Origin: Herminiimonas sp.
GTDB taxonomy: Bacteria > Pseudomonadota > Gammaproteobacteria > Burkholderiales > Burkholderiaceae
Length of the DNA: 64,000 nucleotides
Assembly (NCBI RefSeq): GCF_030655415.1
Contig: NZ_JAURVN010000018.1
Span: 1-64,000 of the forward strand
Reading direction: 5' to 3'
The notes under the pieces are model-generated. The model was not told where the DNA came from, searched no databases, and saw only the letters and a program-made list of their open reading frames with translations. Both the position numbers and the translations under genes were made by a program. Positions 3,873-33,271 of this stretch are shown piece after piece (position 1 is the first letter of the stretch; each line of letters begins with the position of its first letter).

Positions 3873-3951
3873 GCGACTTTTCATACGCATACGCTCTACC
3901 AACATCAAACATCTCAGCGAGTAGCTGGTTCAAATCTTTATTGGAGAAATC

Positions 3952-4803: not shown

Positions 4804-4805
4804 GC

Positions 4806-5231: not shown

Positions 5232-5304
5232 GGCAACGCTTCACATAGGTATGTAGCACGATAGAAATCGCTGCCTATTTCTATTCGACATTAAGGAACA
5301 AGCA

Positions 5305-6290: not shown

Positions 6291-6446
6291 ATATTCTCTT
6301 GAATATTCTCTTTATTGACAGGCCAAAATTTCTCCAGTCTGCTGGAATTTCAATCTCATCAAGCTATCCTCGCTAGATCGCAGCAATGTATTTCTTGCGG
6401 ATTCCTGATGCATTTTTATGTACGTTTTACTTTTATAGAAATCAAT

Positions 6447-10456: not shown

Positions 10457-10533
10457 GTGCGCTTCCGCTGTTAGTGCTACAGCACAGCAGGATTTTTAAT
10501 TTTGAATAATATTATTTTGTGGATAGCCGTTCT

Positions 10534-18060: not shown

Positions 18061-18933
18061 GGGTCTTTCTCCGCTATTGCTTAGGCTACTTGTGTCTGGA
18101 TGCGTTTGTGTTCTCGTATCCGACAAGTCTGGCTATATAAATAATCCGCATAACTACCATCAAAAAATAACTACTGACGGCAGCGTGATCGAAGGATTGA
18201 TTTCTTTAGCATAACGATGGCGGTGTCATATAAGAACCAATAAAAAATCGTTTGGATATTTTTCTATGCGTTAAAGATATTTGGTATTTGCATGTTGATC
18301 GGCTACGGCGCTAATTGAATACGTGTCCGTGGCAGCCGACTAAACATGTCGTTTTATCTTTAAAAATGGCTATCAATAAAATCCAATGATGCTAATCATA
18401 GAAACGGAAGCCTGATGCTGACAACGAATTTGTCCGAATATGCATATCTGAAGTCTGAAGGTGCTACATCGTCATTGCGTATTTGCATGTGCTTATTTGT
18501 TCGTTTGCATGCTGCTCAATACCCGCTATCTTTGAGTCGTATCTACCGGATTATTCTTCGTGAAAAAAAGTTTATTAGGATAGAAAAATTACGCCTGTCT
18601 TTTAGTATTTCTTATGCGCTTGGAAAAATCGGATGCGTATTTTGTACAACGTATGCGGTTTTAAATATTAAATAGATGTGTGCAAATGCGACAGATGGAA
18701 TTGCGCTGCAACTTTGTCCGGGGCGGATCACACGCATTAAATTTTTGTCTTCTCCCATATATATGGCATATGCGAAATTTGCATACCAAAACAAAAAAGG
18801 CTGATCGTTATTCCTATTCTGCTGCTATAGATCGCACTTTTAATTGTTTGTGACACAAGTTCGCTCGCTGTAACTTCTCAAAAAATTGAATCACTTGCGC
18901 ATTGCAAGATTTAAGTATTGAGAAGGAACGGAA
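18061..18933. other. Long AT-rich divergent regulatory region
   Basis: About 870 bases between the divergent regulator and the monooxygenase, clearly richer in A and T than the flanking genes. A weak 86-codon frame at 18415-18675 has no recognisable protein features and an AT-driven composition. CTTGC-N5-GCAAG lies at 18894-18908, close to the monooxygenase start, and could be a LysR-type site. I see no tRNA, insertion element or named RNA. Regulator binding sites are expected here but none can be assigned. Confidence 0.45.
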
Positions 18934-20286
18934 ATGGCAACGCCCCCGCGTCAAATGAGTATCGGTATGAACATCCTTGGTCTGGGAGGCCATGCTGCAG
19001 CCTGGCGTATGGCGGAGGTGCCAAGCAGTTCACTGGTCGATGTCGAATACTTCCGCAACATTGCACGCATCTCGGAGCGCGGTACGCTGGATGCAATTTT
19101 CCTGGCAGATGGTCCTGCGCTTGGCGGCAATGTCGCGCACCATCCAGTTGGCGGCCTCGAGCCCACCGTTTTGTTGACCGCAGTTGCGCTCGCAACCAAA
19201 TACATCGGTGTCATCGCCACTGCTTCGACAACCTACAACGATCCCTACAATCTGGCACGTCGCCTCGCGTCGATTGATCACATCAGTGGTGGTCGTGCAG
19301 CATGGAACGTGGTCACCACCGCAGGTGATATTGCTGCGCTGAACTTTGGATTGACCGGCGCACCTTTGCATGAAGATCGCTACGGTCGCGCTGCAGAATT
19401 TCTCGAGATCGCCATCAAGCTATGGGATAGCTGGGAAGACGATGCGATCGTCAATGATTGGCAGAATGGTTTCTTCGCACATCCGGAAAAAGTCCATGCC
19501 ATCGATCACGTAGGCAAGCATTTCTCTGTCAAAGGCCCGTTGAATGTGCGCCGCTCACCGCAAGGTCGGCCAGTAGTTGTGCAAGCAGGTTCGTCCGAAG
19601 GCGGCAAGTCGGTCGGCTCGCGTTATGCAGATGCGATCTTCACGACACAAACTACTTTGCCGGATGGACAAGCCTTCTACGCCGAGATGAAAAATCGTGC
19701 GCGCGCATGGGGTCGCGATCCTGATTCGCTGAAGATCATGCCTGGTCTGTCTACCGTCATCGGCAGCACGGAAGAAGAAGCGCATCGTCGTTGCGATCAG
19801 CTCGACGAGTTCCAGGGCGAGCAGGGATTGGTTGGCCAGATCGCTGCGCGTATCGGCATCTCAGTCAAGGAATTGGATATTGACGCGCCTTTGCCGTGGC
19901 ACCGAATTGGCACAGTGCAAGACGTGACGAAAAGCTCGCATGGTTTCTTCGAGGCGCAAATCAATCTCGCCAAACGCGAAAACCTGACCGTTCGTCAATT
20001 ATCAAAACGCATACGTAGTGGTCATCGTCTGGTGGTTGGTACGCCAGAGCAAATCGCCGACACATTGGAAGAATGGTTCCTGTCCGGTGCTGGTGATGGC
20101 TTCAACATCATGCCGGACATGTTCCCGTCTGGTGCCGAAATTTTCGTCGATGAAGTCGTGCCTCTTTTGCGTCGCCGCGGCATCTTCCGCACCGAATACA
20201 CAGGCACCACCTTGCGTCATCACCTCGGCTTGTCCAGACCAAGAAGTCAGTATGAAGAAGAGCAGGAAGCATTGCTCAGTGCCTGA
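18934..20286 (+). CDS. FMN-dependent monooxygenase, NtaA/SnaA/DszA family
   Basis: 450 residues of the same luciferase-like family as the protein at 7899. Family segments include MSIGMNILGLGGHAAAWR, LDAIFLADGPALGG, ASIDHISGGRAAWNVVTTA and RPVVVQAGSSEGGKS. It needs reduced FMN from a partner reductase, which the window does not contain. Members oxidise sulfur or nitrogen compounds. AGAAGGAA precedes the ATG. As the first gene of the cluster divergent from a CysB-like regulator it is likely the enzyme acting on the imported compound, which is inference. Confidence 0.88.
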   Translation: MATPPRQMSIGMNILGLGGHAAAWRMAEVPSSSLVDVEYFRNIARISERGTLDAIFLADGPALGGNVAHHPVGGLEPTVLLTAVALATKYIGVIATASTTYNDPYNLARRLASIDHISGGRAAWNVVTTAGDIAALNFGLTGAPLHEDRYGRAAEFLEIAIKLWDSWEDDAIVNDWQNGFFAHPEKVHAIDHVGKHFSVKGPLNVRRSPQGRPVVVQAGSSEGGKSVGSRYADAIFTTQTTLPDGQAFYAEMKNRARAWGRDPDSLKIMPGLSTVIGSTEEEAHRRCDQLDEFQGEQGLVGQIAARIGISVKELDIDAPLPWHRIGTVQDVTKSSHGFFEAQINLAKRENLTVRQLSKRIRSGHRLVVGTPEQIADTLEEWFLSGAGDGFNIMPDMFPSGAEIFVDEVVPLLRRRGIFRTEYTGTTLRHHLGLSRPRSQYEEEQEALLSA

Positions 20287-20365
20287 GGTCTTGCAAGACA
20301 GCCTTCGCCTCCGGCGAAATCTCCATGACATACGAATGCATCAGTAACGACGGGAATTTTCTGTA

Positions 20366-21286
20366 ATGAGCAGTATTTTAAGCACCGCTACCGGCCAGCT
20401 GGACAGGAATGATTTCGGCGTAACGATCGATCAATCGATCGCACGCAGCGGCAAATCGTCTGCGCCATGGGCGCGTTTGTATGGCATACGGCCGGGACTT
20501 GTGCTGGCGGCGATCTTCGTTCTGTTCTTGATCATCGCTGCATTGCAGCCTTCATGGCTGGTCTCTGGCGATCCGTTAGCCGCTTCCGCACGTGAAGCCT
20601 TTCGCGCACCAAGTGCTGCACATTGGTTGGGCACAGATGAAAACGGCCGCGATGTCTTGACGCGCTTGATCTACGGCGTGCGCCCATCCTTGTTGATGGG
20701 TTTGGCTGCAACGGTGATTGGTCTGGTGATCGGCGTTGCGATAGGTTTGTTTGCAGGTCTTGGTCATCGCGTAATCGATAACTTGCTGATGCGCTTCATT
20801 GATGTGTTGCTGGCTTTTCCTGATCTGTTGCTCGCGCTGGTGATCATCACTTTCTGGGGCCAGGGCATGATCAACGCAATTGTCGCGGTCGGTGTTGCGA
20901 GTGTGCCGCGCTACGCACGTATGGTCCGCGCACAAACACATATCGTCCGTAATGCGCAGTATGTAGAAGCGGCAATCACATTGGGTTTGAGTACCTCGAC
21001 GCTGATCTTCCGTCATATCTTGCCAAATGCGATCAAGCCGATATTGATTCTTGCCACGATAGGAATAGGCGGCAAAATTGCTGCTGGTGCTGCTTTGAGT
21101 TTTCTTGGGTTTGGTGCGCCGCCACCTTCGCCTGAATGGGGTTCGATGTTGTCGGTCGGCCGTAACTTTTTATCGAATGCATGGTGGCTAGTCACCGCCC
21201 CTAGCGTTGCAGTGACATTGACAGTGATCTCCATCACGGCATTGGGTCGCGAGCTGGCATTGCGCAGCGAAGGTAAGCGCACATGA
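20366..21286 (+). CDS. ABC importer permease, DppC/OppC family
   Basis: 306 residues with an N-terminal cytoplasmic part of about 40 residues, then six membrane helices. The DppC hallmark LGTDENGRDVLTRLIYGVR precedes the transport domain, and EAAITLGLSTSTLIFRHILP is the loop that contacts the ATPase. It overlaps the ATPase gene by four bases (ATGA). The matching DppB-type permease is not adjacent but lies at 30993, beyond two receptor/binding-protein pairs. The system probably imports the substrate of the neighbouring monooxygenases. Confidence 0.9.
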   Translation: MSSILSTATGQLDRNDFGVTIDQSIARSGKSSAPWARLYGIRPGLVLAAIFVLFLIIAALQPSWLVSGDPLAASAREAFRAPSAAHWLGTDENGRDVLTRLIYGVRPSLLMGLAATVIGLVIGVAIGLFAGLGHRVIDNLLMRFIDVLLAFPDLLLALVIITFWGQGMINAIVAVGVASVPRYARMVRAQTHIVRNAQYVEAAITLGLSTSTLIFRHILPNAIKPILILATIGIGGKIAAGAALSFLGFGAPPPSPEWGSMLSVGRNFLSNAWWLVTAPSVAVTLTVISITALGRELALRSEGKRT

Positions 21287-23031
21287 CAGTAGCAAGCAAC
21301 AGCACGCACGGTAAACAGAATCCGTTGGTCACAGTTGAAAACCTGCATGTTCGCTTTGGACATGACGGTGCAACTGTCATCAAAGGAATCTCGTTTGAAC
21401 TATATCGCGGCGAATGCCTTGCCTTGGTCGGCGAATCCGGCTCCGGCAAAAGCGTGACGTCTCGTACCTTGGTCGGCCTAACTGGTCACCGTAGTCAGTT
21501 GAGCGCAGATCGGTTGGATTTCGACGGTGCAGATTTACGCCGCTTTAATGAACGTACCTGGCGCAATATTCGTGGCAGTCGCATTGGCTTTGTCATGCAA
21601 GATGCACTGGGTTCACTGGATGCATTGCGCACTATCGGTGATGAAGTCGCCGAACCTCTCAAGCTGCACACCAATTTGACGCGTCAACAACGCGAAGAAA
21701 AAGTAATCGAGCTTTTACGCTCTGTCGGCATTCCCGATCCTGAAGCGCGCATACACCAATATCCGCATCAACTCTCTGGCGGCTTGCGTCAACGTGCGTT
21801 GATCGCATCGGCCATCGCGTGCAATCCGCAACTCTTGATCGCGGATGAGCCGACCACTGCACTCGATGCCGCAGTGCAGGCGCAAGTTTTGGATTTGTTG
21901 GAGTCGTTGCGCACACCCGATACATCAATGCTGATTGTCAGTCACGATTTTGCTGTGGTGTCACGACTTGCTGATCGCGTTGCAGTGATGCAGCACGGTG
22001 TGATTGTTGAGCAAGGTCCGCTGGACGAGATTCTGCATGATCCGCAACATCCTTACACCAAGTCTTTATTGGCGGCAGTCTCTTCCGTGCAGAGACGTGA
22101 ACCTGTACATCAAAAAATAGCCGTGGCCGAAGATGGTCATCTGGCTGCTGTGCCGAGTGAACTGCCACCAGCCATCATCAATACGTATCCCGTCGTTGTT
22201 GAATGCAACAACCTGACCAAGACATTTGCTGCACACGATGGAACAAAACGTACTGCTGTTTCCGAAGTGTCGTTCGCATTGCGCAAGGGTGAGACCGTAG
22301 GCATCGTCGGCGAATCAGGCTCAGGCAAAACTACATTGACACGCATGGTGCTAGGTCTGGAAAAGCCGGACATAGGCAACGTGCGACTGCGCGATCAAGT
22401 CTGGAGTGACTTGACGGCTGCTCAGCAGCGCGCAGAGCGCAAACGTATTCAGGTGGTATTCCAGGACCCGCTCAGCTCCTTCGACCCGCGTTACACAGTC
22501 GAGCGCGTCTTGTTCGAAGCGCTGGGCGTCGCTGGTTACACCAACGCAGCCAAGACGCGCGAACGCGCAATTGAATTACTGCATCTGGTGCGACTTGATC
22601 AAAGTTATCTCAGCCGTCGCCCTATCGAATTATCTGGTGGTCAACGTCAACGCATCGCCATCGCACGCGCGCTTGCGCCTGAGCCTGAAGTGCTGGTTTG
22701 CGATGAGCCGGTATCGGCACTCGATGTATCAGTGCAAGCCCAAATTCTGGATCTGCTGCTCGACCTGAAAGATCGACTGGGTTTGTCTTGCCTGTTTATT
22801 TCGCATGATCTTGGTGTCATCTATCGCGTGAGCGATCGCATCCTTGTAATGAAGGATGGCGTGGTAGTCGAGTCTGGTGGTGTACGTGAAGTATTTGAAA
22901 ATCCGCAGCACGTTTATACGCAATCTTTATTGAGCGCAATCCCGCAACTGGGAAAAAGAAAGCGCGCAGTTCATTCAATTGATTCAGGGAACAGTAAAAG
23001 TGAAAAAGAAGAAGAACTCGATGCAGCATGA
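21283..23031 (+). CDS. ABC importer ATPase with two fused nucleotide-binding domains (DppDF/GsiA type)
   Basis: 582 residues containing two complete ATPase domains, so one polypeptide does the work of DppD plus DppF. Domain 1 has GESGSGKS, LSGGLRQR and LLIADEPTTALD; domain 2 has GESGSGKT, LSGGQRQR and VLVCDEPVSALD. Each is followed by the oligopeptide-transporter C-terminal extension (HPYTKSLLAA and HVYTQSLLSAIP). It overlaps the permease gene by four bases and its 3' end overlaps the next gene, a TonB receptor. It powers import through the DppC- and DppB-like permeases of the cluster. Confidence 0.92.
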   Translation: MTVASNSTHGKQNPLVTVENLHVRFGHDGATVIKGISFELYRGECLALVGESGSGKSVTSRTLVGLTGHRSQLSADRLDFDGADLRRFNERTWRNIRGSRIGFVMQDALGSLDALRTIGDEVAEPLKLHTNLTRQQREEKVIELLRSVGIPDPEARIHQYPHQLSGGLRQRALIASAIACNPQLLIADEPTTALDAAVQAQVLDLLESLRTPDTSMLIVSHDFAVVSRLADRVAVMQHGVIVEQGPLDEILHDPQHPYTKSLLAAVSSVQRREPVHQKIAVAEDGHLAAVPSELPPAIINTYPVVVECNNLTKTFAAHDGTKRTAVSEVSFALRKGETVGIVGESGSGKTTLTRMVLGLEKPDIGNVRLRDQVWSDLTAAQQRAERKRIQVVFQDPLSSFDPRYTVERVLFEALGVAGYTNAAKTRERAIELLHLVRLDQSYLSRRPIELSGGQRQRIAIARALAPEPEVLVCDEPVSALDVSVQAQILDLLLDLKDRLGLSCLFISHDLGVIYRVSDRILVMKDGVVVESGGVREVFENPQHVYTQSLLSAIPQLGKRKRAVHSIDSGNSKSEKEEELDAA

Positions 23032-25162
23032 TGCCGCAGTACATGCGTTGATCGCAAAAAGAAGAGGGACTGTATTGCGCACATTGAGCGCAAGCGCAGT
23101 GTTGCTGTTCGCTAGCGGCGCAGTCTACGCGCAGGAATCGGCAACGCAAGTTGAAGAAACAGTTGTCATCAAGGGTAAGGCCTTGAAGGATTCTGAAAAG
23201 GCCAAGGAAAAACTCAAAAATGTTGCGGGTACTGCAAGTGTCGTTAACAACGCAGATGTTGAACGTGGTCGTGCGGCGAATGCCGAGGACGTATTGGCTT
23301 ATCAGCCAGGTGTTTTCGCTGCTGCTACCAGTGGCACCGGGGCTAACAAAATTTCGATACGCGGATCAGGCTTGAATGCCTTCTATCAGGGTTATTCGCT
23401 GGGCATTAAATATCTGTATGACGGATTACCTATTACCGGACCGGGAGGTACGCAGGAGGATTTGCTGACTTTGGGTGGTGTTGATTACACAGAAATTCTC
23501 AACGGTGCGAATGCCTTCGCTTACTCCGCACTCTCGCTAGGCGGTGCGATCAACTTTGTCACGCATACAGGTCGCTCTTCACCAGGCAACTTCGTCAGCA
23601 TAGAAGCCGGCAGTTTTGGTTATCGTAAATACCAGGTGAGCACCGGCGGTGTATCAGAGTCTGGGGATACCGATTACTACCTTTCGTATATTCACAATCA
23701 ACGTGATGGTTTTCAAATCAATAGTCCGAATTCGGGCGAGGACTATATCGTCAATCTGGGTCACAAGTTCAATGATCGCGTAGAAACACGTTTTGTCATT
23801 CGCCATCGCGGTGAACAGTTAAGAAATGGCAGCACACTGACGCGAGCGCAACTCGAAGCCGACCCTCGCAACAGCACCTCCACCGCCTCGGCGCGCAGGA
23901 AACCAGGGACTACGCTGATTACCAACAAGACCACATTCACATTGGATGACAAGTCGAAATTTGAACTTGGTTTTGCCTATAACGACTATCCCTTGGATAA
24001 CGGCTGGATCTACAACACGCAGCCGCAGGATTGGCGTTCCAAGGATTTCACTACTTCACTGAGATATCTGCGCACTGGCGATACTTTGTTTGGCAAGCTT
24101 AGCGATACTACGATCAGCTTTAGTGATACGCGTTTGATCGACGGTGATGTGACTGCCTATAACCAGCCAACTCCCGGCGTGCGTACAACCGAACGTCAAT
24201 ATACAAAGTACAGCGGTTCACGCGATACGGTGCTTTCCGCGAGTAATGAGCTTCATCTTACTGACAAGTACACATTGTCGAGCGGCTTGTCACTCATTGA
24301 AATAGATCGTGATGTTCGTATTGAGCGTTCTACCTTGCCGGTAAGTCCTTTGCCATTCCCGCAGGCAGTTAGCTACAAGGATCGTTCACTTGCACCGCGC
24401 TTAGGTTTGCGTTATCAGGCGACGCCAGATCTTCAAGTGTTTGGTAATGTCTCGCGCTCGATCGATCCACCTGTGACTTGGCAAATGGGCAGTACAGGTA
24501 GCAGATATGTACGCCCGTTGAAACCACAAAAAGCCAACACTGCGGAAATTGGTCTGCGTGCCAGCAATGACAATCATGAAGGAAGTCTGGCTTTCTATCG
24601 CTCATATGTAAGCGACGAATTGCTTACGTCGATAGCAAGTCCTGCGGTTGGTGCAACTCCAGCGTTGGTTGCCAATACCAATGCCAGCAAGACCATACAT
24701 CAAGGTATCGAGGCGGCACTGACTTCCAAATTGTGGAAGAGCGGCGGCGGTGATCGCTTGAGCTATCGTCAGGCATATACCTTTAACGACTTCTACTACC
24801 GCAATGATTCTAGATACGGCAAAAACGAATTGCCGAGTTTGCCGCGTCATGTTTATCAGGGTGAGTTGTTATTCCAGCAGGCAGGTGGGTTTTATTCGGG
24901 TGTGAATGTACGCGCGATGTCCGGTTATTACATCGATTATGCCAATTCATTCAAAGGCGCAGAAGCAACGGTGTGGGGCGCGAAGTTTGGTTACGAAGAG
25001 CCTGCGAAAAAGTGGAAAGCCTATATCGACTTCCGCAACCTGTTTGACAAAAAATATGCAGCCGCTGCGAATACCGTCGATAACGCAGGTGGTGTGGATT
25101 CACCCAACTTCTACCCAGGTGATGGCTTCTCCGTCTACACCGGCGTATCCGTCCGGTTCTGA
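23000..25162 (+). CDS. TonB-dependent outer-membrane receptor, copy 1
   Basis: About 720 residues: signal peptide ending ASGAVYAQES, a TonB box in EETVVIKGK, a plug domain with VLAYQPGVF and ISIRGSGL, and a 22-strand barrel ending in YTGVSVRF. I prefer GTG 23000, with AGGGA upstream, because its paralogue at 27058 also starts with GTG and a lysine-rich stretch; ATG 23021 is the alternative. The 5' end overlaps the ATPase gene, so it is in the same operon. It brings a compound across the outer membrane with TonB energy. Being tied to a DppA-type importer rather than a siderophore system suggests a non-iron ligand. Confidence 0.88.
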   Translation: MKKKKNSMQHDAAVHALIAKRRGTVLRTLSASAVLLFASGAVYAQESATQVEETVVIKGKALKDSEKAKEKLKNVAGTASVVNNADVERGRAANAEDVLAYQPGVFAAATSGTGANKISIRGSGLNAFYQGYSLGIKYLYDGLPITGPGGTQEDLLTLGGVDYTEILNGANAFAYSALSLGGAINFVTHTGRSSPGNFVSIEAGSFGYRKYQVSTGGVSESGDTDYYLSYIHNQRDGFQINSPNSGEDYIVNLGHKFNDRVETRFVIRHRGEQLRNGSTLTRAQLEADPRNSTSTASARRKPGTTLITNKTTFTLDDKSKFELGFAYNDYPLDNGWIYNTQPQDWRSKDFTTSLRYLRTGDTLFGKLSDTTISFSDTRLIDGDVTAYNQPTPGVRTTERQYTKYSGSRDTVLSASNELHLTDKYTLSSGLSLIEIDRDVRIERSTLPVSPLPFPQAVSYKDRSLAPRLGLRYQATPDLQVFGNVSRSIDPPVTWQMGSTGSRYVRPLKPQKANTAEIGLRASNDNHEGSLAFYRSYVSDELLTSIASPAVGATPALVANTNASKTIHQGIEAALTSKLWKSGGGDRLSYRQAYTFNDFYYRNDSRYGKNELPSLPRHVYQGELLFQQAGGFYSGVNVRAMSGYYIDYANSFKGAEATVWGAKFGYEEPAKKWKAYIDFRNLFDKKYAAAANTVDNAGGVDSPNFYPGDGFSVYTGVSVRF

Positions 25163-25164
25163 TA

Positions 25165-26904
25165 ATGGCAATCAGCATATTCAAAGGAGTCATGACATTA
25201 CCTGATGCGGCACGCGCCTTGTCTAAAGGTGTAATTCGCATGGCCGGTATTGCTCTGCTGTTCGCGCTCGCTGCTTGCCAGGGCGAGTCGGGCAGTAGCG
25301 CGTCCCCGGCACAAGGCAAGGTCGTAACCAAACATCCGGTGAGTGATTACATTGAAACCGCACCAGGTCGCCCCGGCGGCACCTTACGCGTTTCGGTTGC
25401 ATCAGATACAGACTCTTTCGATATGCATGCTATTTCGCACACTAATGCGGAATGGCTGGGGCGCTTGATTTACGACAATCTCGTTTATCTCGACGACAAA
25501 GGTGAGCCGACTCCATGGTTGGCAAAATCATGGGACATCTCACCTGATGGCAAGACCTACACTTTCCATTTGCGTGACGATGTGTCGTTCAGCGATGGTT
25601 CAAAGTTCAATGCAGAAGCGGTGCGCATCAACCTTGAGCACATGCGCAATCCAGCTACCAAGTCGCCTTTGGCTGCAGCGTATATCTCGCCTTATATCAA
25701 TGGCGAAATTGTTGATGAGTACACCTTCCGTGCGCATCTGCGTGAACCGTATGCGCCGTTCTTGAATGTACTTGCTCAGTCATGGTTGGCGATGTTGTCG
25801 CCCAAGCAGATCAAGGAAGCGCCACGCAGTATTGCTGAAGCGCCTGCGGGATCAGGGCCGTTCGTTGTGGAAAGCTATACACGTCAGCGCGGGATTCGTT
25901 TGGTGCGTCGTGCCGATTACGCATGGGCACCTGATTTCATCAAGCACAAGGGCGCTGCTTATCTGAATCGTATCGAGCTGGACTTCGTACCGGATGCATT
26001 GATTCGCTACAGTTCGCTTGCGGCGGGGCAGTACGATCTGACCATCGATGCGCCCGCGCAGAATGCATCCAATGTTCGCAATGATGCGCGACTTGCATTT
26101 GACAGTCGTATTCGTCAGGGCAATCCGAATCGCGGCATTACCTTCAATACAGAGAAATTTCCATTTGACGATGTGCAAGTGCGCAAAGCATTTGCGTTGG
26201 CCGTTGATCGCGAAGGCGTGATCCGCATCAGTGGCTTTGGCGAATACCAACCCAAAAGTGATTACCTGGCCGCGAATACGCGCTACTACGATCCGGCCTA
26301 TACCAAGGCGTTGTTGTTCTCCCCGGAACAATCCAACAAATTGCTGGATGCTGCCGGCTGGACGCAACGCGATGCAGAAGGGTTTCGCGTACGTGATGGC
26401 AAGCGACTCGCGACCGATGTGCTGGTGTCCGGTCTCAGTAATTTGACCGACATCGTCGCCATTCAAGCGGATGTGAAGAAGGTCGGGTTCGACCTGAATA
26501 TCGTGCAGTTGCCGGTTGTGCAAATTGTTGATCGACGTCGTGCGAATGAATATCAGGCGCTGGGTTCTGGCGTATGGCACACCAATACTGCAGATGGTCT
26601 CTACATTCTGTATCACAGCAACGAGATCATTTCTCCTAAACGTATCGGACAAAACACATCCCGCTTGCGCGACGCCAAACTGGATCAAGTTCTGCTCGAG
26701 GCACGCGGTACTGTAGACGCTCAAAAGGCGGCTGCGCTTTACAGTCAGGCGCAAAAACGTCTGACGGAATTGGTGCCCTCACTTCCACTGTACGAAAACT
26801 ACAGTCTGACTGCGCGCTACAACGATGTAAAAGGCGTCATCTACGACACCTCGCACAACACTATTGTCTTTACAACGGTGTGGCTGGATCGGAGCAGCCC
26901 ATGA
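25165..26904 (+). CDS. ABC importer substrate-binding lipoprotein (DppA/SBP_bac_5 family), copy 1
   Basis: 579 residues. A lipobox LAACQ follows the N-terminal hydrophobic segment, so the protein is anchored in a membrane. Family features are PGGTLRVSVASDTDSFD, SWDISPDGKTYTFHLRDDV and FNAEAVRINLEHMRNPATKS. ATG 25165 lies two bases after the receptor stop (TGATAATG), suggesting coupled translation; ATG 25192 has AAAGGAG unusually close before it and is an alternative. It hands its ligand to the split DppB/DppC permease. It is closely similar to the protein at 29245. Confidence 0.88.
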   Translation: MAISIFKGVMTLPDAARALSKGVIRMAGIALLFALAACQGESGSSASPAQGKVVTKHPVSDYIETAPGRPGGTLRVSVASDTDSFDMHAISHTNAEWLGRLIYDNLVYLDDKGEPTPWLAKSWDISPDGKTYTFHLRDDVSFSDGSKFNAEAVRINLEHMRNPATKSPLAAAYISPYINGEIVDEYTFRAHLREPYAPFLNVLAQSWLAMLSPKQIKEAPRSIAEAPAGSGPFVVESYTRQRGIRLVRRADYAWAPDFIKHKGAAYLNRIELDFVPDALIRYSSLAAGQYDLTIDAPAQNASNVRNDARLAFDSRIRQGNPNRGITFNTEKFPFDDVQVRKAFALAVDREGVIRISGFGEYQPKSDYLAANTRYYDPAYTKALLFSPEQSNKLLDAAGWTQRDAEGFRVRDGKRLATDVLVSGLSNLTDIVAIQADVKKVGFDLNIVQLPVVQIVDRRRANEYQALGSGVWHTNTADGLYILYHSNEIISPKRIGQNTSRLRDAKLDQVLLEARGTVDAQKAAALYSQAQKRLTELVPSLPLYENYSLTARYNDVKGVIYDTSHNTIVFTTVWLDRSSP

Positions 26905-27000
26905 TCCGAAATTTCTACTTTATGCACTTCACAACATGTCGCTGTTGTCGAGCTGCAGCCCTCGTCTGACATTTGATTGCAGGTCATACCCAAATTTTCG

Positions 27001-27027
27001 GCTTCCGTACTTTCAAAAGTGCGAAGC
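27001..27027 (+). promoter_or_regulatory. Strong hairpin between binding protein 1 and receptor 2
   Basis: GCTTC and GTACTTT pair with AAAGTGC and GAAGC around a tiny loop with one bulged base. No T run follows, so it is more likely an mRNA stabilising or processing element than a terminator. Confidence 0.4.
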
Positions 27028-27057
27028 AAATAGCTACTCTCTCAGGAAGAATTAATC

Positions 27058-29196
27058 GTGAATAAAGCAGTCAAGCAAGTAAAAAATATATCGTCATGGC
27101 GCTCTCATTTTGCGTTACGGACATGGAGCGCAAGTGCTGTGTTGCTGTTGGCTAGTGGTGCTGTCTATGCACAAGAAGCGACGACGCAAGTGGAAGATAC
27201 GGTTGTCGTCAAGGGTAAAGCTCTCTCGGCACCAGACAAGTCCAAAGTCAAACTTGAGAGCGTGACGGGCAACGTCAGCGTGGTGAAAAATGCTGATGTT
27301 GAAAAAGGCCGTTCATCGACTTTGGAAGATGTGCTGGCCTTTGAGCCAGGTGTGTTCGCGCAGGCGGCTGGTGGCAATGATGCAGTCAAGATTTCTATTC
27401 GTGGTTCTGGTATCGCCACCGGTTCGGGTGTATTTCGGGAAGGTACTGCATTTCTGTTTGACGGTTTAGCGCTGACTGGTTCAGGCGGCACGCCTTATGA
27501 ATTGCTTGAAATGTCTGGGATTGATTACACGGAAGTGCTGCGTGGCGCGAATGCTTTTCAATATGGCGCATTGGCATTAGGTGGCGCCATTAATTTGGCG
27601 ACACATACCGGACGGACTTCCCCTGGCGCTTATGTACGGGTTGAGGCTGGTAGTTTTGGTTGGCGTAAACAACAGTTGAGTGTCGGCGGCGTATCAGAAT
27701 CAGGTGACAACGACTACTACGTCAGCGTCACTAATTCGGAACGTCGTGGCTATCAGAAATGGACGAACGTCGACGCGAAGGGGATAGTCGGTAACTTTGG
27801 TTTCCGTCTGACCCCGCAACTAGAGACACGACTCTTTGTTCGTTATCGTGAGGAGTATCACCAAAATGCTGGAGCGTTGACGATCGCGCAGATGAAAGCG
27901 GATAGTACGCAAACTGATCCTGCGCAACTTACCTCACGTGGTGATGGGACCAAACCCGGGTCAACTTTCATCGGTAGTAAAACGACTTACACCATCGATG
28001 ATATTTCCAAACTTGAGTTCGGTTTGGTCTATCACGATTACCCGCAAATTCTTGGCATCAACAATCCAACATCGCCTAACTATTGGACATGGCGCGACGT
28101 CAATGCATCCCTGCGTTACCTACGCAGCGAGCAACTGTTTGGTTTGCAAAGTGAAACCGCAATCAGTTTGACACGCACGCAGGCTATCGACTCCAGCGTC
28201 AAAACATACAACGGAACTACAAAAGCATTGTTGAAGTATGCAAAATATGACAGTTCATCCGATACCGTTCTGGCAGCGGGGAATGAGCTGCAGCTGAACC
28301 CTCGTACCTGGTTGTCTAGTGGTTTGTCAGTTGTGAATATACGTCGTGACGTAAATACGGTTTATTCGAATGTTCCAGTTTCCAATGCTGGAACCACCTA
28401 TGACCATCTTGACCTGGCGCCACGTCTTGGTTTGCGTTATGAGCTGGCACCAAAGGTCGTGGCGTTTGCTAACGTTAGCCGTTCTATTGATCCGCCTGTT
28501 ACCTGGGGATTTACTGGCTCTGGAGTGGCCACGACTGCACAAAGGGGTGTGAAAAACCTGACCGAGCAGAAGGCTAATACATTCGAAATCGGTTTGCGTG
28601 GAAGTAACGACACTTTCACCGGCAGTGTGGCGTTGTATCGCTCTGAGGTACGCAATGAGCTGTTGACTGCGCAAATTCCAGGAGTGTTACCTGCGGAAAA
28701 TGAAAAACGAAACGCCACGCCTACGGTTCACCAAGGATTAGAGGCTGGTCTGGATGCACGTTTGTGGAAAGGTGCGGGTGGCGACAACATCGTGTTGCGT
28801 CAGGCGTATACCTATAGCGACTTTCACTACAAAAACGATCCTGTTTTCGGCGGGAACGATTTGCCTGGTCTACCTAAGCATGTCTACAGTGCAGAAGCGC
28901 AATACCAGCATCCAAGCGGCTTCTATGCTGGTGTCAATGTCCGCTACGCCTCGAAAACCTGGATCGATTATGCCAACTCATTGGCTGCTCCGAATTACAC
29001 AATCTTCGGCGCCAAATTTGGTTATGAGCAACCCGGTGGTAAATGGAGCGTCTTCCTCGATTTGAGAAATCTGACTGACAAAGCGTATGCAACAGCGATC
29101 AGTCCGGCATATAACGTTCGCGGTCTGGATACCACGCGTGCGATCTATGTTGGCGATGGCTTCGGTGCGTTTGCAGGTGCGTCGTACCGCTTTTAA
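27058..29196 (+). CDS. TonB-dependent outer-membrane receptor, copy 2
   Basis: 712 residues, GTG start at 27058 with AGGAAGA upstream. The signal peptide (WSASAVLLLASGAVYAQE) and TonB box region (EDTVVVKGKAL) are almost the same as in copy 1, and the plug has VLAFEPGVF and ISIRGSGI. The barrel ends in FAGASYRF with a terminal Phe. The loops differ more than the plug and strands, as expected for receptors diverging in ligand choice. It lies 153 bases after binding protein 1 and 48 bases before binding protein 2, repeating the order receptor then binding protein. Confidence 0.9.
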   Translation: MNKAVKQVKNISSWRSHFALRTWSASAVLLLASGAVYAQEATTQVEDTVVVKGKALSAPDKSKVKLESVTGNVSVVKNADVEKGRSSTLEDVLAFEPGVFAQAAGGNDAVKISIRGSGIATGSGVFREGTAFLFDGLALTGSGGTPYELLEMSGIDYTEVLRGANAFQYGALALGGAINLATHTGRTSPGAYVRVEAGSFGWRKQQLSVGGVSESGDNDYYVSVTNSERRGYQKWTNVDAKGIVGNFGFRLTPQLETRLFVRYREEYHQNAGALTIAQMKADSTQTDPAQLTSRGDGTKPGSTFIGSKTTYTIDDISKLEFGLVYHDYPQILGINNPTSPNYWTWRDVNASLRYLRSEQLFGLQSETAISLTRTQAIDSSVKTYNGTTKALLKYAKYDSSSDTVLAAGNELQLNPRTWLSSGLSVVNIRRDVNTVYSNVPVSNAGTTYDHLDLAPRLGLRYELAPKVVAFANVSRSIDPPVTWGFTGSGVATTAQRGVKNLTEQKANTFEIGLRGSNDTFTGSVALYRSEVRNELLTAQIPGVLPAENEKRNATPTVHQGLEAGLDARLWKGAGGDNIVLRQAYTYSDFHYKNDPVFGGNDLPGLPKHVYSAEAQYQHPSGFYAGVNVRYASKTWIDYANSLAAPNYTIFGAKFGYEQPGGKWSVFLDLRNLTDKAYATAISPAYNVRGLDTTRAIYVGDGFGAFAGASYRF

Positions 29197-29244
29197 TCGA
29201 TCTGTAATTGATCTTTAAATGTAATAAATGAAGGGGCTGTAAAT

Positions 29245-30996
29245 ATGATGCGGATTGCCAAAGGCAATGGATCGATCTCTTTGCTGAATGCGCTGTTACG
29301 TATCAGCTTGTTGGCAGGCGCTTGTGTGTTGAGCGCCTGCTCATCAGGCGATAGTGAAACAAAAGCAGCCGGAACGAATCCGACAGGTTCCGGGATCTTG
29401 AAGAATGGCCAACTGAGCTATTCTGCTGCGGATTATTATCAGCAAAGCGAAGGCAAGCCTGGCGGTACTTTGCGTGCCACGGTGGCGGCGGATACGAACA
29501 CGTTTGATGTGCATTCGATTTCGCACGGTAATGTGCAATGGCTGGGTCGGATCATCTACGATGCTCTGGTCTATCAAGATGAAGAAGGCAATATTTCTCC
29601 ATGGTTGGCGAAGTCGTGGGACATCTCTGCAGATGGCAAGGTATATACCTTTCATTTGCGTGAGGGCGTCACGTTCAGCGATGGCACGCCTTTCAATGCC
29701 GAAGCAGTGCAAGTGAATCTGGAGCACATGCGTGATCCAGCGACCAAGTCGCCACTGGCTGCTGCTTACATCAAGCCTTATGTGCGCGGGCGGATTATTG
29801 ATCCCTACACTTTCGAAGCGACCTTGAAGGAACCGTACGCGCCTTTCCTCGATGTATTGGCGCAATCATGGTTGAGCATGATTTCACCTAAGCAGATCAA
29901 GGAAGATCCAAAATCGATTGCCGAAAAGCCGATCGGTTCTGGCCCGTTTGTACTTGAGAGTTACACACGCAGTCAGGGTGCAAGCTTCGTCAAGCGTGCG
30001 GACTACAACTGGGCGCCGCCGGTAGTGCGACATCAAGGTCCGGCATATCTGGATCGCATAGAGCTGATCTTTGTACCGGAAGCGATGATTCGTTATTCAT
30101 CGTTGCAAAGCGGCCAGTCTGATTTCACGCTGGATGCGCCGCCACAAAATGCACAAGCGATTCGTGCGAATCCTGATTTGCGTTTTCATAGCCGCATCCG
30201 TAAAGCGAATCCATTCCGCAGTCTGACCTTCAATACCGAGCGCGCGCCCTTTGATGATGTGTTGGTACGCAAGGCTTTGGCGTTGGCAATCGATAGAGAA
30301 GGCGTCGCATGGATTGCCGGCTTCGGTGAGTTTTTGCCAAAGAGCGATTATCTTGCGGCTAACACGCGTTACTACGATCCGTCGTTTAAAAACGCATTGG
30401 TTTATAACGTCACCGAAGCTGCGCGTTTGTTTGATCAGGCGGGCTGGACTGAACGTGATGCAGAGGGATATCGCACAAAGAATGGTCAGCGTCTTTCAGC
30501 GACTTTGTTGATTACCGAAAATCCGGGTTTTCCAAATAGCGTTGCTGTGGCGATTCAGGCCGATGCGCGTAAAGCCGGATTTGAACTAAAGATTGAGATG
30601 GTGCCTTTGGCGGTGTCAACTGAACGACGCTACGCGGGCGACTATCAAGCTTTGGGTGGCGGCTATTGGCACACGAATACGCCGGATGGACTCTACATTC
30701 TTTATCACAGCAATTCGATCGCCAGCGAAAAGTTGATAGGACAAAACAGTTCGCGCTTGCGTGATCCAGAACTCGACGACGCATTGGAGCGTGCTCGCAA
30801 GTCCACCGATCCATCCGAGTTGCAGGCGCTTTACAGCACTGCGCAACGAAGATTGACGGAGCTGGTGCCGGCTGTTCCTTCTTACGAAAGTCATCACATG
30901 ATTGCTTATCGCAAAGAAGTTAAGGGCGTGATCTTTGATACCTCGCATAACACTCCTTTATTCATCGGCGTGTGGCTGGACAAGGCGGCGCAATGA
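29245..30996 (+). CDS. ABC importer substrate-binding lipoprotein (DppA/SBP_bac_5 family), copy 2
   Basis: 583 residues with lipobox LSACS after a typical lipoprotein signal. It shares long blocks with copy 1, for example FNAEAVQVNLEHMRDPATKS against FNAEAVRINLEHMRNPATKS, and the same QALGxGxWHTNTxDGLYILY segment. The start is ATG 29245 (a second ATG follows). The last codons overlap the start of the DppB-like permease (ATGA), so it is tightly coupled to the transporter. Both copies probably serve the same permeases, giving the importer two specificities. Confidence 0.9.
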   Translation: MMRIAKGNGSISLLNALLRISLLAGACVLSACSSGDSETKAAGTNPTGSGILKNGQLSYSAADYYQQSEGKPGGTLRATVAADTNTFDVHSISHGNVQWLGRIIYDALVYQDEEGNISPWLAKSWDISADGKVYTFHLREGVTFSDGTPFNAEAVQVNLEHMRDPATKSPLAAAYIKPYVRGRIIDPYTFEATLKEPYAPFLDVLAQSWLSMISPKQIKEDPKSIAEKPIGSGPFVLESYTRSQGASFVKRADYNWAPPVVRHQGPAYLDRIELIFVPEAMIRYSSLQSGQSDFTLDAPPQNAQAIRANPDLRFHSRIRKANPFRSLTFNTERAPFDDVLVRKALALAIDREGVAWIAGFGEFLPKSDYLAANTRYYDPSFKNALVYNVTEAARLFDQAGWTERDAEGYRTKNGQRLSATLLITENPGFPNSVAVAIQADARKAGFELKIEMVPLAVSTERRYAGDYQALGGGYWHTNTPDGLYILYHSNSIASEKLIGQNSSRLRDPELDDALERARKSTDPSELQALYSTAQRRLTELVPAVPSYESHHMIAYRKEVKGVIFDTSHNTPLFIGVWLDKAAQ

Positions 30997-31925
30997 ATAA
31001 TCTAAAGCGAATACTTTTCCGTTTGCTGGCAGGCATTGGCGTGTTGTGGGGCGCTGCAACATTGACCTTCATTGCCATCAATGTTACCGGTGGCGACACG
31101 GCGCTGGCGATTGTCGGCGGACCGGATGCGATGCCGACTGCCGAAGTCTTGGCGCGTGTACGTATCGAATACGGTCTCGATAAACCATTGATCGTCCAGT
31201 ATGGAAATTACCTTGGTCGTCTAGCGCAAGGTGATCTTGGCGAATCTTATCGTCTGCGCGTTCCTGTTCTGCAAGCAGTCACGCAACAACTAGGTGCGAC
31301 TGTGCAACTGGCATTGTGCGCGGGCATCTTGTCGATCACGGTTTCCGTTCTGCTGGCGTTGTTGACGGCACGTCGCGCGCAATGGATACGCTCATTTACT
31401 TCTGGTGCTGAACTGACGCTTACTTCCGCACCATCGTTTGTGATCGGCATTTTGTTACTGCTGGTGTTTTCGTTTTATTTTCACTTCTTTCCGGCATCGG
31501 GTTCACAAGGTTGGCGCTCCTTAGTACTACCGACAATTGCGCTGTCTTTGCCCATCATTGGGGTGTTGACGCAGGTGCTGCGACAGGAGGTGGAAGACGT
31601 GCTTGAGCAACCTTTTATTTTGACTGCACGCGCACGCGGCATGTCGGATACCGGCGTGCGTTTTCGTCATGCTTTGCGACATGCATTGATCCCTCTTGTC
31701 ACCTTGTCCGGCTTTGTGTTTGCCAGTTTGTTAGGCGGTGCAGTGGTAGTCGAGATGTTGTTTGCACGTCAGGGCGTAGGGCGACTGATGCTGGATGCTG
31801 CCAACAGCAAGGATGTACCTATCGTGCTTGGCATCACTTTGCTGGCTGCCTTCATCTATGTCGTTGTCAATCTGGTTGTTGACGTTCTGTATGGATTGAT
31901 CGATCCACGTGTACGCGCAACCTAA
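30993..31925 (+). CDS. ABC importer permease, DppB/OppB family
   Basis: 310 residues, six membrane helices, with the DppB features YGLDKPLIVQYGNYLGRLAQGDLGES in the first periplasmic part (here given as two overlapping signatures YGLDKPLIVQYGNYLG and LAQGDLGES) and the ATPase-contact loop ARARGMSDTGVRFRHALRHA. The start at ATG 30993 overlaps the previous stop by four bases. It completes the importer begun at 20366. In most oligopeptide-family operons DppB directly precedes DppC; here about 10 kb lies between them and DppB comes last. Confidence 0.9.
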   Translation: MNNLKRILFRLLAGIGVLWGAATLTFIAINVTGGDTALAIVGGPDAMPTAEVLARVRIEYGLDKPLIVQYGNYLGRLAQGDLGESYRLRVPVLQAVTQQLGATVQLALCAGILSITVSVLLALLTARRAQWIRSFTSGAELTLTSAPSFVIGILLLLVFSFYFHFFPASGSQGWRSLVLPTIALSLPIIGVLTQVLRQEVEDVLEQPFILTARARGMSDTGVRFRHALRHALIPLVTLSGFVFASLLGGAVVVEMLFARQGVGRLMLDAANSKDVPIVLGITLLAAFIYVVVNLVVDVLYGLIDPRVRAT

Positions 31926-31966
31926 TTAATCGTAATTTAAATTTTCTTAAGCAAGGCCTGAATATC

Positions 31967-33271
31967 ATGACTCAAACTGCTACCGTTCATCATCTTGAAC
32001 AAAAATCTGCCGCCCACGCTGGCTTTGTTCGTCCTACTTACGAAGAGTTGGCGCAACGCTTTCGACCTATCTTTGAGCGCATTGCCGAAGGTGCGGTTGA
32101 GCGAGAACAAAACCGTGCACTTCCGTATGAAGCAGTGAAGTGGCTGCGTGAAGCTGGCTTTGGCCGGGTACGTATTCCGCAAGCATATGGCGGTTTTGGC
32201 GCGACGATTCCACAACTGTTCCGTTTGTTGGTAGAGCTGGCAACTGCAGATTCCAACGTATCGCATTTGTTGCGTGGCCATTTCGCATTTCTCGAAAGCC
32301 GCATCAATCACACCGATGAAGCGGTGCGCGAATTCTGGTTTCCAAAAATCGTGGAAGGTGCCTTGATCGGCTATGCAATGGCAGAGTTGACCGAAGTCAC
32401 CGGTACCAGCGCTACCATCACGCAGACAGATGGAAAGTGGTTCTTGAACGGCAAAAAGTATTACAGCACTGGGACTATTTACGCGGACTGGATCGTGGCC
32501 TCTGTCGTGGATGGCGAGGAGCGCGTCAGCGTTGCATTGCTTGCGAATTCGCCAGGCGTGACACGCGAAGATGATTGGGATGGTTTCGGTCAACGCATGA
32601 CGGGCAGCGGCACCACGATTTTTGAGCAAGTCGAAATCGACCCGGCGAATATCAATCGTCGTCTGACCGGCAAAGATAGCTACGCGCAGTCATATCAAAA
32701 AGCTTTTTTGCAATTGATCTTGCTGGCGTCGATCGCCGGTGTCGGTCGTGCGATCAAGCGTGATGGCATTGCATTCGTACAGCGCAAGACGCGTGCGTTC
32801 GGCGTGATGGGGGAATCCAGTCCACGTAACGATCCACTTGTACAACGCGTAGTTGGCCGTCTGGCTAGTTTGTCGTTTGCCGCAGATACGATCGTGGAAG
32901 GCATTGCGCTCGCTTTGGAAGAAGTGCATCAAGCGCGTCTGGCGGATACTGCCGATGAATCGCTGTATGTAGAAACTGAAATCAAGGCATTCCAGGCGCA
33001 ACAAGTGGTGATTGATCTAGTGCTGCAAGCGAGTACTTTGCTGTTTGAAGTTGGTGGTGCATCGGCTACCAGCGAAACTCGTCGTCTTGATCGCCACTGG
33101 CGTAACGCGCGCACTGCGGCCTCGCATAATCCAGCGATTTTCCGTGAACGTGCGATTGGCGATTACTACTTGAACGGTACCGTGCCGGATGCCGCATGGG
33201 CTGCGGCTGAAAAAGAAAAGGAAGAAGCCAAGGCGAAAGAAAAGGAAGACGCCGCAGCAAAGGCAAGCTGA
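31967..33271 (+). CDS. DszC-like flavin monooxygenase (acyl-CoA dehydrogenase fold)
   Basis: 434 residues with the acyl-CoA dehydrogenase fold: N-terminal helices with REAGFGRVRIPQAYGGFGA, a middle domain with MAELTEVTGTSATIT and WFLNGKKYYSTGT, and C-terminal helices. The pattern around YYSTGTIYADW resembles DszC/SfnB-type FMNH2-dependent monooxygenases of sulfur scavenging more than true dehydrogenases, and no acyl-CoA pathway genes are near. A Lys/Glu/Ala-rich tail of about 20 residues ends the protein. It follows the permease by 41 bases in the same direction. The substrate is unknown; attack on an organosulfur compound is the best guess. Confidence 0.8.
   Translation: MTQTATVHHLEQKSAAHAGFVRPTYEELAQRFRPIFERIAEGAVEREQNRALPYEAVKWLREAGFGRVRIPQAYGGFGATIPQLFRLLVELATADSNVSHLLRGHFAFLESRINHTDEAVREFWFPKIVEGALIGYAMAELTEVTGTSATITQTDGKWFLNGKKYYSTGTIYADWIVASVVDGEERVSVALLANSPGVTREDDWDGFGQRMTGSGTTIFEQVEIDPANINRRLTGKDSYAQSYQKAFLQLILLASIAGVGRAIKRDGIAFVQRKTRAFGVMGESSPRNDPLVQRVVGRLASLSFAADTIVEGIALALEEVHQARLADTADESLYVETEIKAFQAQQVVIDLVLQASTLLFEVGGASATSETRRLDRHWRNARTAASHNPAIFRERAIGDYYLNGTVPDAAWAAAEKEKEEAKAKEKEDAAAKAS

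What the first reader, a model, noticed from the sequence alone, without database searches (positions are those of the whole stretch)
18934..33271. Candidate organosulfur scavenging system joining TonB receptors, an oligopeptide-type importer and flavin monooxygenases
One strand carries, with little spacing, an NtaA/DszA-type monooxygenase, DppC permease, fused ATPase, two TonB receptor/lipoprotein pairs, DppB permease and a DszC-like monooxygenase, divergent from a CysB-like regulator. Sequence shows the genes; family knowledge says DszA/DszC/SfnG-type enzymes attack C-S bonds or sulfones and CysB controls sulfur supply, and TonB receptors for sulfur esters have been described (SftP of Pseudomonas). 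Inference: a dedicated route for a large or scarce sulfur compound that cannot pass porins. The full combination with two receptor/binding-protein pairs is one I do not know as a described system.
Basis: partly seen in the sequence, partly recalled or inferred. Interest (0 to 1): 0.72.

Follow-up and report, generated by a model that had tools for sequence, protein, structure and literature searches.

The report
Receptor-fed organosulfur scavenging gene island
This stretch of a bacterial genome holds a tight gene set that most likely pulls a scarce sulfur-containing molecule through both cell membranes and cuts the sulfur out; relatives carry the same set, but its substrate and function are inferred, not shown by experiment.

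Summary
Nine tightly spaced genes (18934-33271, +): LLM monooxygenase, Dpp-type permease, fused ATPase, receptor-lipoprotein, receptor-lipoprotein, permease, DszC/SfnB-type oxygenase, divergent from a CysB-family regulator.

The sulfur reading gains indirect support. The regulator keeps four CysB sulfate-site residues. Operon proteins hold 1.07% Met+Cys against 2.86% in 33 other window ORFs; class-matched controls in related genomes point the same way, with overlap. In 20 of 20 sampled Pseudomonas loci with the SBP2 orthologue, a TonB receptor and the DszC/SfnB-type enzyme sit beside it.

The unit is larger than the finding said. In the window and three related genomes a syntenic island runs from TonB-ExbB-ExbD-ExbD (3243-5736 here) through a second LLM monooxygenase and aldo-keto reductases to the operon; two of the three add an SfnB-type gene, a rhodanese and a YeeE-like transporter.

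The two pairs are not fixed: relatives have one to three receptors and one or two binding proteins, though both lineages are old. The binding proteins are predicted lipoproteins; 16 of 16 other family-5 binding proteins in three genomes gave no lipobox.

Substrate, induction and localisation are undemonstrated. New variant of a known kind.

The parts
17146..18126 (-). CysB-family LysR regulator, divergent; probable start ATG at 18060
   Evidence: NF009327 408.6 bits, above its 402 cut-off; CysB (362.6<436) and Cbl (366.7<491) equivalogs not reached. 45% to E. coli CysB, 50% to Cbl. T100, T102, Q103, T202 kept in the alignment to 1al3 (role of these residues recalled).
18390..18452 (-). conserved block with the likely regulator promoter; dyad GACAA-N5-TTGTC at 18420-18434 overlaps the -35
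   Evidence: Conserved in three genomes in an otherwise diverged spacer; one of the three has GGCAA for GACAA. Sigma-70-like TTGTCA-18-TATGAT on the minus strand, 10 of 12, though the region has fewer promoter-like sites (7) than its shuffles (mean 18.2). The only exact dyad in the window.
18822..18854 (+). second conserved block upstream of monoA, candidate operon promoter/leader
   Evidence: Conserved in three genomes; TGCTATAGA resembles an extended -10 (inference; not reported by the scan).
18934..20286 (+). monoA: FMN-dependent LLM monooxygenase, NtaA/DmoA subfamily
20366..21286 (+). permC: Dpp/Opp-type inner-membrane permease
   Evidence: PF00528.
21283..23031 (+). fused DppD/DppF-type ATPase
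   Evidence: Two ABC_tran and two oligo_HPY stretches.
22979..25162 (+). TBDR1: TonB-dependent receptor (likely start 23021)
   Evidence: PF00593+PF07715; TBDR1 clade of 11 rows, support 100/100.
25165..26904 (+). SBP1: family-5 binding protein, predicted lipoprotein (LAAC|Q)
   Evidence: PF00496; lipobox in the printed protein; SBP1 clade of 4 rows, 98/98.
27058..29196 (+). TBDR2: TonB-dependent receptor
   Evidence: PF00593+PF07715; nearest PDB sequences YncD and a pyrroloquinoline quinone transporter, 78-80 bits.
29245..30996 (+). SBP2: family-5 binding protein, predicted lipoprotein (LSAC|S)
   Evidence: PF00496; Cys32 invariant in 16 of 16 aligned.
30972..31925 (+). permB: Dpp/Opp-type permease (likely start 30993)
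   Evidence: PF00528+PF19300.
31967..33271 (+). monoC: acyl-CoA-dehydrogenase-fold flavin monooxygenase, SfnB/MsuC/DszC relative
   Evidence: TIGR04022 261.7<430.9; nearest PDB sequence methanesulfinate monooxygenase 6u76, 117 bits; in 20 of 20 sampled Pseudomonas loci.
3243..3872 (+). TonB of the island
   Evidence: PF03544/TIGR01352; syntenic in 3 of 3 related genomes; in those genomes not the best-scoring TonB.
3952..4803 (+). ExbB
   Evidence: PF01618; syntenic in 3 of 3.
4806..5736 (+). two ExbD genes (4806-5231, 5305-5736)
   Evidence: PF02472 for both; syntenic in 3 of 3.
6315..7460 (+). AKR1, aldo-keto reductase
   Evidence: PF00248; syntenic in 3 of 3.
7899..9281 (+). LLM2, second NtaA/DmoA-subfamily monooxygenase
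   Evidence: TIGR03860 517.1>279.7; 86-90% orthologue on the same contig about 9-12 kb from monoA in 3 of 3 related genomes.
9443..10456 (+). AKR2, aldo-keto reductase
   Evidence: PF00248; syntenic in 3 of 3; 55-59% relatives in 8 Pseudomonas loci, two of them the same contig.
10519..14345 (+). two ABC exporter half-transporters (10519-12510, 12411-14345)
   Evidence: PF00664+PF00005; syntenic in 3 of 3; 56-58% homologue beside the Xylophilus cluster.

Best explanation
A sulfur-limitation-induced island for scavenging organosulfur. Proposed steps: (1) the CysB-family regulator senses low sulfur and activates the divergent operon. (2) TBDR1 and TBDR2, energised by TonB (perhaps the island's own TonB-ExbB-ExbD-ExbD set), move a scarce organosulfur compound across the outer membrane. 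(3) Lipid-anchored SBP1/SBP2 take it over and pass it to one shared Dpp-type permease pair with a fused ATPase. (4) In the cytoplasm monoC, a SfnB/MsuC/DszC-type flavin enzyme, adds oxygen to sulfur. (5) monoA, and perhaps LLM2, cleaves the C-S bond as DszA or CmoJ do, releasing an oxidised sulfur species for assimilation and an aldehyde that the aldo-keto reductases can reduce. Gene content, conservation, regulator family and sulfur-poor composition are shown here; induction, localisation, substrate and enzyme order are inferred.
For: Gene content. CysB-family regulator with T100/T102/Q103/T202 kept. Sulfur-poor proteins: operon 50 of 4661 residues (1.07%; the count includes permB's first Met) against 343 of 12002 (2.86%) in 33 other window ORFs chosen by hand, Fisher p 3e-13, rank test p 6e-4; receptors 0.69% (n=7) against 1.64% (n=30), p 7e-4; SBPs 1.03% (5) against 2.09% (16), p 0.009; permeases 1.50% (4) against 2.77% (26), p 0.016; medians, from related genomes, not the window's own. 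Linkage in 20 Pseudomonas loci: TBDR 20, monoC 20, permB 20, ATPase 19, permC 19, monoA 16, AKR 13. Three actinobacterial relatives (L024, L029, L032) keep SBP, permease and ATPase genes and show no receptor. Island genes: in G149 an SfnB at 506.9>430.9, in G136 a frame of the same length, place and near-identical start; rhodanese and YeeE-like transporter in both. Published two-flavoenzyme logic with an aldehyde product: PMC10863075, abstract and part 1 of 3 read. SfnB-family genes move with other sulfur-acquisition genes in Acinetobacter: passages of PMC13344012 and PMC12892962. An accessory tonB-exbBD set (PA0197-99) is reported as sulfate-starvation induced: passage of PMC3377617 citing Tralau 2007.
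Against: No expression, substrate or localisation data. monoA is missing from 4 of 20 Pseudomonas loci (L188, L189, L190, L192); three of these have an LLM2-like gene nearby, L190 shows none. Two of the three actinobacterial relatives (L029, L032) show neither oxygenase. No flavin reductase is among the nine operon genes; one sits beside the Cellulomonas cluster L024. Low Met+Cys is not specific: 4 of 30 control receptors are at 0.57% or below, and none of the four has an evident sulfur gene right beside it (neighbours read by eye). Receptor controls are the ten best-scoring per genome, 30 of 123 matches; permease loci are 30 of 70 matches, four of them cluster genes. After an unassigned SBP (5u4o), the SBP profile's nearest solved sequences are NikA-type nickel binders. 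TonB-ExbBD linkage rests on four related genomes. No Pseudomonas locus mapped shows a LysR of this type beside the cluster.
Confidence: 0.66

Rival explanations
1. Metallophore uptake: the receptors and NikA/CntA-like binding proteins import a metal-opine or siderophore, and the flavin enzymes release the metal by breaking the chelator.
For: SBP profile's nearest named solved sequences are NikA-type; NCBIfam nikA 191-212 bits and CntA 148-166 bits, all below cut-off; TBDR2 has weak matches to CntO and FoxA, 55-57 bits.
Against: CysB-family regulator, sulfur-poor proteins, and a DszC/SfnB-type enzyme in every sampled cluster. The best receptor matches are YncD and a pyrroloquinoline quinone transporter, a non-metal cargo.
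Confidence: 0.12
2. Chelator catabolism: uptake and oxidative cleavage of an aminopolycarboxylate of NTA/EDTA type, as a carbon or nitrogen source.
For: monoA and LLM2 belong to the NtaA/DmoA subfamily; an NTA monooxygenase and EDTA monooxygenase EmoA rank high by sequence and model.
Against: monoA may be absent (4 of 20) while monoC, whose nearest characterised relatives act on sulfur, is in 20 of 20; SfnB-type, rhodanese and YeeE-like genes lie in the island of two relatives.
Confidence: 0.1
3. General peptide or glutathione-type importer; the oxygenases are incidental neighbours or detoxify imported compounds.
For: Dpp/Gsi-type permeases and ATPase; two Pseudomonas loci (L002, L178) carry a gamma-glutamyltransferase-like gene next to the receptors; L002's scores 353 against a cut-off of 358.
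Against: DppA, OppA and GsiB equivalog cut-offs missed by both SBPs; no acidic residue at the aligned position of the DppA peptide-amine Asp, though GsiB lacks it too (role recalled); linkage to monoC is 20 of 20.
Confidence: 0.07

Closest known systems
SftP / Ats system (atsACBR-sftR-atsK-sftP) of Pseudomonas
   Same: LysR-type regulator, ABC importer and a TonB-dependent receptor grouped for organosulfur supply (passage of PMC3596284).
   Different: There the chemistry is sulfate-ester cleavage (arylsulfatase, alkylsulfatase) with a sulfonate-type importer; here it is LLM plus DszC/SfnB-type oxygenases with a Dpp-type importer, lipoprotein SBPs and two receptor lineages.
CmoO/CmoJ S-alkylcysteine salvage (Bacillus subtilis)
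   Same: Two flavoenzymes in series, sulfur oxidation then C-S cleavage giving an aldehyde (PMC10863075); CmoJ/YtnJ is the nearest solved sequence to monoA.
   Different: Substrate known; the pathway as described has an acetylation step and no TonB receptor is part of it; the protein family of CmoO was not checked here.
Dsz 4S pathway
   Same: A DszC-type sulfur oxygenase with a DszA-type LLM sulfone monooxygenase.
   Different: No DszB desulfinase among the nine operon genes; monoC scores 116 against the DszC cut-off of 850.
Family-5 SBP/Dpp operons beside LLM monooxygenases (TIGR04028-like)
   Same: SBP5-Dpp operons next to LLM enzymes, e.g. the Pantoea plasmid L156.
   Different: SBP1/SBP2 miss the TIGR04028 cut-off (206-217 against 468.5); no TonB receptor among the 16 features shown in L156.
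SusCD-type receptor-lipoprotein pairs
   Same: TonB-dependent receptor encoded next to a substrate-binding lipoprotein.
   Different: The lipoprotein is SBP_bac_5, not SusD, beside an ABC importer; surface exposure not shown.

Membership tests
NtaA/DmoA-family FMN monooxygenase (TIGR03860) | score over the curated cut-off 279.7 | tested here: met
   monoA 506.6, LLM2 517.1.
SfnB sulfur acquisition oxidoreductase (TIGR04022) | score over 430.9 | tested here: not met
   monoC 261.7; the G149 island gene L232:8558-9874 does, 506.9.
DszC dibenzothiophene monooxygenase (NF043015) | score over 850 | tested here: not met
   monoC 116.2.
CysB-family regulator (NF009327) | score over 402 | tested here: met
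   408.6.
CysB-family regulator (NF009327) | sulfate/inducer-site residues T100, T102, Q103, T202 of CysB (recalled) | tested here: met
   All four kept in the printed alignment to 1al3.
CysB or Cbl equivalog | score over 436 (CysB) or 491 (Cbl) | tested here: not met
   362.6 and 366.7.
SftP/Ats sulfate-ester system | sulfatase gene beside the receptor | tested here: not met
   None among the nine operon genes scanned.
Dsz 4S pathway | DszB desulfinase in the operon | tested here: not met
   No such gene among the nine.
CmoO/CmoJ salvage | monoA closer to CmoJ than to DszA or NtaA | tested here: inconclusive
Dpp/Opp peptide importer | DppA, OppA or GsiB equivalog score | tested here: not met
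   All below cut-off for SBP1 and SBP2.
SusCD system | SusD-family lipoprotein | tested here: not met
   Only PF00496 found in SBP1 and SBP2.
Sulfur-starvation regulon member | induced when sulfate is limiting | not testable with these tools
   No expression data; composition is indirect support.

The most novel reading that the evidence does not exclude
A self-contained, Sus-like uptake machine for organosulfur: family-5 binding lipoproteins are anchored in the outer membrane as partners of their TonB receptors, energised by a dedicated TonB-ExbB-ExbD-ExbD set, with interchangeable receptor/lipoprotein modules feeding one inner-membrane importer and one pair of C-S cleaving flavin enzymes. 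Receptor choice would set which sulfur compound is scavenged.
Probability: 0.2. Interest if true: 0.75.

Novelty: new variant of a known kind. Interest (0 to 1): 0.52.

Why it matters
Organic forms can make up over 95% of sulfur in aerobic soils (passage of PMC3596284), and TonB receptors are often annotated as iron receptors. A conserved, patchily spread receptor-to-enzyme set, under a CysB-family regulator in the window and three relatives, would explain some orphan 'siderophore' receptors, help to find which bulky organosulfur compounds bacteria use, and offer a receptor-lipoprotein-ABC architecture to test.

Tried and rejected
SBP2 structure prediction gave mean pLDDT 54.6 and was not used. 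The dyad as a regulon-wide operator: of four exact hits of its core (CAACGAATTTGTC) in three genomes, three are the island copies and the fourth lies in a coding frame that looks like acetolactate synthase (name by eye), so it is treated as local. Clustering of neighbouring ORFs without coding-strand scoring gave antisense artefacts and was replaced. Low Met+Cys as a stand-alone predictor of sulfur genes was rejected. A recent local tandem duplication for the two pairs was rejected: TBDR1/TBDR2 and SBP1/SBP2 part before their Pseudomonas and Oxalobacteraceae members do. Rfam at gathering thresholds found only the tRNA. A plasmid search gave only relatives under 60% identity. Control ORFs first picked by length were re-called by strand and frame, which replaces it. 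Three close SBPs with wrong gene starts (L004, L014 SBP1, L017 first copy) could not be read for a lipobox. In one search permB was counted from three bases before its likely start. Searches were for side questions (CmoJ, sulfur-poor proteins); one listed nothing of use.
Full report
What is there. The nine genes and the divergent regulator are present at the stated places and match the families named. Gaps between neighbours run from overlaps to 153 bases, so one operon is likely. The SBPs carry lipoboxes (LAAC|Q and LSAC|S). No whole genome is held for the window. The nearest SBP2 protein is an unnamed 97% one; the nearest named ones are from Herminiimonas glaciei (84%) and Janthinobacterium sp. 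Marseille (83%), so an Oxalobacteraceae origin is inferred.

Who else has it. At E 1e-180, 22 of 199 genomes of the genus of G002 (Pseudomonas daroniae) have the SBP2 orthologue. A sample of 398 genomes of the phylum gave only the seed genome G001, Oxalicibacterium flavum. In the family of G001, 4 of 145 have a match at 1e-150: G001, G136 and G149 have the cluster, while G142 has a 49% SBP with no receptor or transporter match in the 19 kb read around it. I fetched 20 of the 22 Pseudomonas loci (the other two, G002 and G003, had been read as L002 and L014). In those 20: TBDR 20, monoC 20, permB 20, ATPase 19, permC 19 (L181 is cut by its contig end), monoA 16, aldo-keto reductase 13. Some of these 20 are the same contigs as loci. 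Azoarcus, Xylophilus, a Lysobacterales bin and Acinetobacter carry related sets. Three actinobacterial relatives (L024, L029, L032) keep SBP, permeases and ATPase and show no receptor, as expected if the receptors serve outer-membrane passage; L024 also has both oxygenase types, L029 and L032 neither.

The two pairs. The number of modules varies: window TBDR-SBP-TBDR-SBP; G149 two receptors and one SBP; G136 three receptors and one SBP in the part read; Oxalicibacterium TBDR1-SBP1-SBP2 with a further receptor after monoC; two Pseudomonas (L014, L021) TBDR1-SBP1-TBDR2-(TBDR)-SBP2. In the trees (36 receptor rows, 27 SBP rows from selected loci), TBDR1 rows from the window, its three relatives, Pseudomonas, Lysobacterales and Acinetobacter form one clade of 11 (100/100), and SBP1 rows from the window, Oxalicibacterium and two Pseudomonas one clade of 4 (98/98). 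The pairs are therefore old and shared, by descent or transfer, and are gained and lost as modules.

A larger island. Upstream the window holds TonB, ExbB, two ExbD genes, a GAF protein, AKR1, a second NtaA/DmoA-type monooxygenase (LLM2), AKR2 and two ABC exporter halves. The same order leads to the regulator and operon in G149, G136 and G001. In G001 the window's outer neighbours are missing: no TerC or Usp match left of TonB, no glycerol kinase match right of the operon, so the conserved block there is TonB to monoC. In G149 an SfnB (506.9 bits, cut-off 430.9) lies between LLM2 and AKR2; G136 has a frame of the same length and near-identical start in that place. Both have a rhodanese and a YeeE-like transporter next to the regulator; the thiosulfate-transporter TsuA cut-offs are not reached. 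LLM2 occurs in 5 of 145 family genomes: the three cluster genomes, plus G142 and G027. In those two it lies among Dpp-type transporter genes and a 28-30% monoC relative, with no receptor or TonB match in the 20 kb read; AKR2 and ABC homologues were seen in G142 and an 80% regulator homologue in G027. LLM2 relatives (43-49%) lie in 22 loci examined, some of them one genome fetched twice. The window thus looks like the union of two sulfur cassettes. The relatives are few and not independent.

Sulfur evidence. Operon proteins hold 50 Met+Cys in 4661 residues (1.07%) against 343 in 12002 (2.86%) for 33 other window ORFs. Class-matched comparisons within related genomes: receptors 7 against 30 (G001, G002, G004), SBPs 5 against 16 (same genomes), permeases 4 against 26 (G001, G149), all lower at the median with overlap. 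Receptor controls are the ten best-scoring matches per genome (30 of 123); permease loci 30 of 70. Four of 30 control receptors are as low, so the signature is supportive, not specific. The regulator belongs to the CysB family and keeps four residues that, from memory, form the CysB sulfate site. G001, G149 and G136 each have three such regulators at E 1e-50, the island copy being 85-92% to the window's and the others 49-53%. Two blocks of the divergent spacer are conserved; one fits the regulator's own promoter.

Lipoprotein SBPs. A lipobox was found by pattern in 20 of 27 close SBPs; by eye four more show one, and three have wrong gene starts. Cys32 is invariant in 16 of 16 aligned SBPs. None of the 16 other family-5 SBPs in G001, G002 and G004 gave a lipobox by the same pattern, though some of those frames start too early. 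Against distinctiveness: 40 of 54 more distant SBPs, many of them Gram-positive but some from second Pseudomonas cassettes, also gave one, so ancestry is a rival reason. No Asp follows the Cys in the 20, which by the E. coli +2 rule (recalled) points to the outer membrane.

Chemistry. monoA is nearest by sequence to YtnJ/CmoJ (335 bits; DszA 289), and its model (pLDDT 74.8) matches BdsA and CmoJ about equally. monoC is nearest to methanesulfinate monooxygenase, TdsC and DszC. PMC10863075 describes sulfoxidation by CmoO, then C-S cleavage by CmoJ to a sulfenic acid and an aldehyde (abstract and part 1 of 3 read). By analogy monoC oxidises sulfur and monoA cleaves; aldo-keto reductases would take the aldehyde. 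In 13 of 20 Pseudomonas loci an aldo-keto reductase gene is in the cluster, and two were named by family scan. Absence of monoA from four Pseudomonas clusters weakens the fixed two-enzyme order.

Literature. Eight searches of an open-licence library gave no listed paper whose title or abstract start names this combination. Three of the listings were cut (20 of 30, 12 of 75 and 12 of 155), and subscription papers, among them the 2007 P. aeruginosa sulfate-starvation study, are not held. So 'undescribed' is not proven. In P. protegens Pf-5, PFL_0244 and PFL_0245 are reported as SfnB-family genes that fall with sulfur genes in a gacS mutant (passage of PMC12892942); whether they belong to such a cluster was not tested.

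Verdict. A real, conserved gene island, most probably for organosulfur scavenging under sulfur limitation, with the substrate unknown. It is a new variant of known parts rather than a new kind.

Noticed in passing
window 33271-33919: A SAM-dependent methyltransferase gene (Methyltransf_25 in its first piece) overlaps the end of monoC and is split into two frames; in G149 and G136 a GNAT gene follows monoC directly.
   Followed up: partly
window 16219-17037: A 272-residue protein with what looks like a signal peptide and a weak methyltransferase match, with only 0.37% Met+Cys, beside the regulator; in G149/G136 a rhodanese and a YeeE-like transporter take this place.
   Followed up: partly
window 5814-6290: Small GAF-domain protein that resembles free methionine-(R)-sulfoxide reductase (name recalled); Pfam sees only GAF. 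Its place between ExbD and AKR1 is kept in three genomes.
   Followed up: partly
window 26905-27057: The 153-base gap between SBP1 and TBDR2 is the longest in the operon and could hold a second promoter or processing site.
   Followed up: no
L128 2718-13608: Pseudomonas daroniae (G002) has a second, paralogous set next to the first (TBDR, SBP, permB, permC, ATPase, LLM, SfnB-like), so two similar systems lie side by side.
   Followed up: partly
L002 3308-4942 and L178 near 17.3 kb: A gamma-glutamyltransferase-like gene lies beside the receptors in two Pseudomonas loci, hinting at glutathione-conjugate-like substrates there.
   Followed up: no
L133 (Xylophilus bin, G007): Carries a homologue of the window's ABC exporter halves, a second LLM and two SBP2-like genes around one receptor cluster; one SBP match has a stop inside.
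   Followed up: partly
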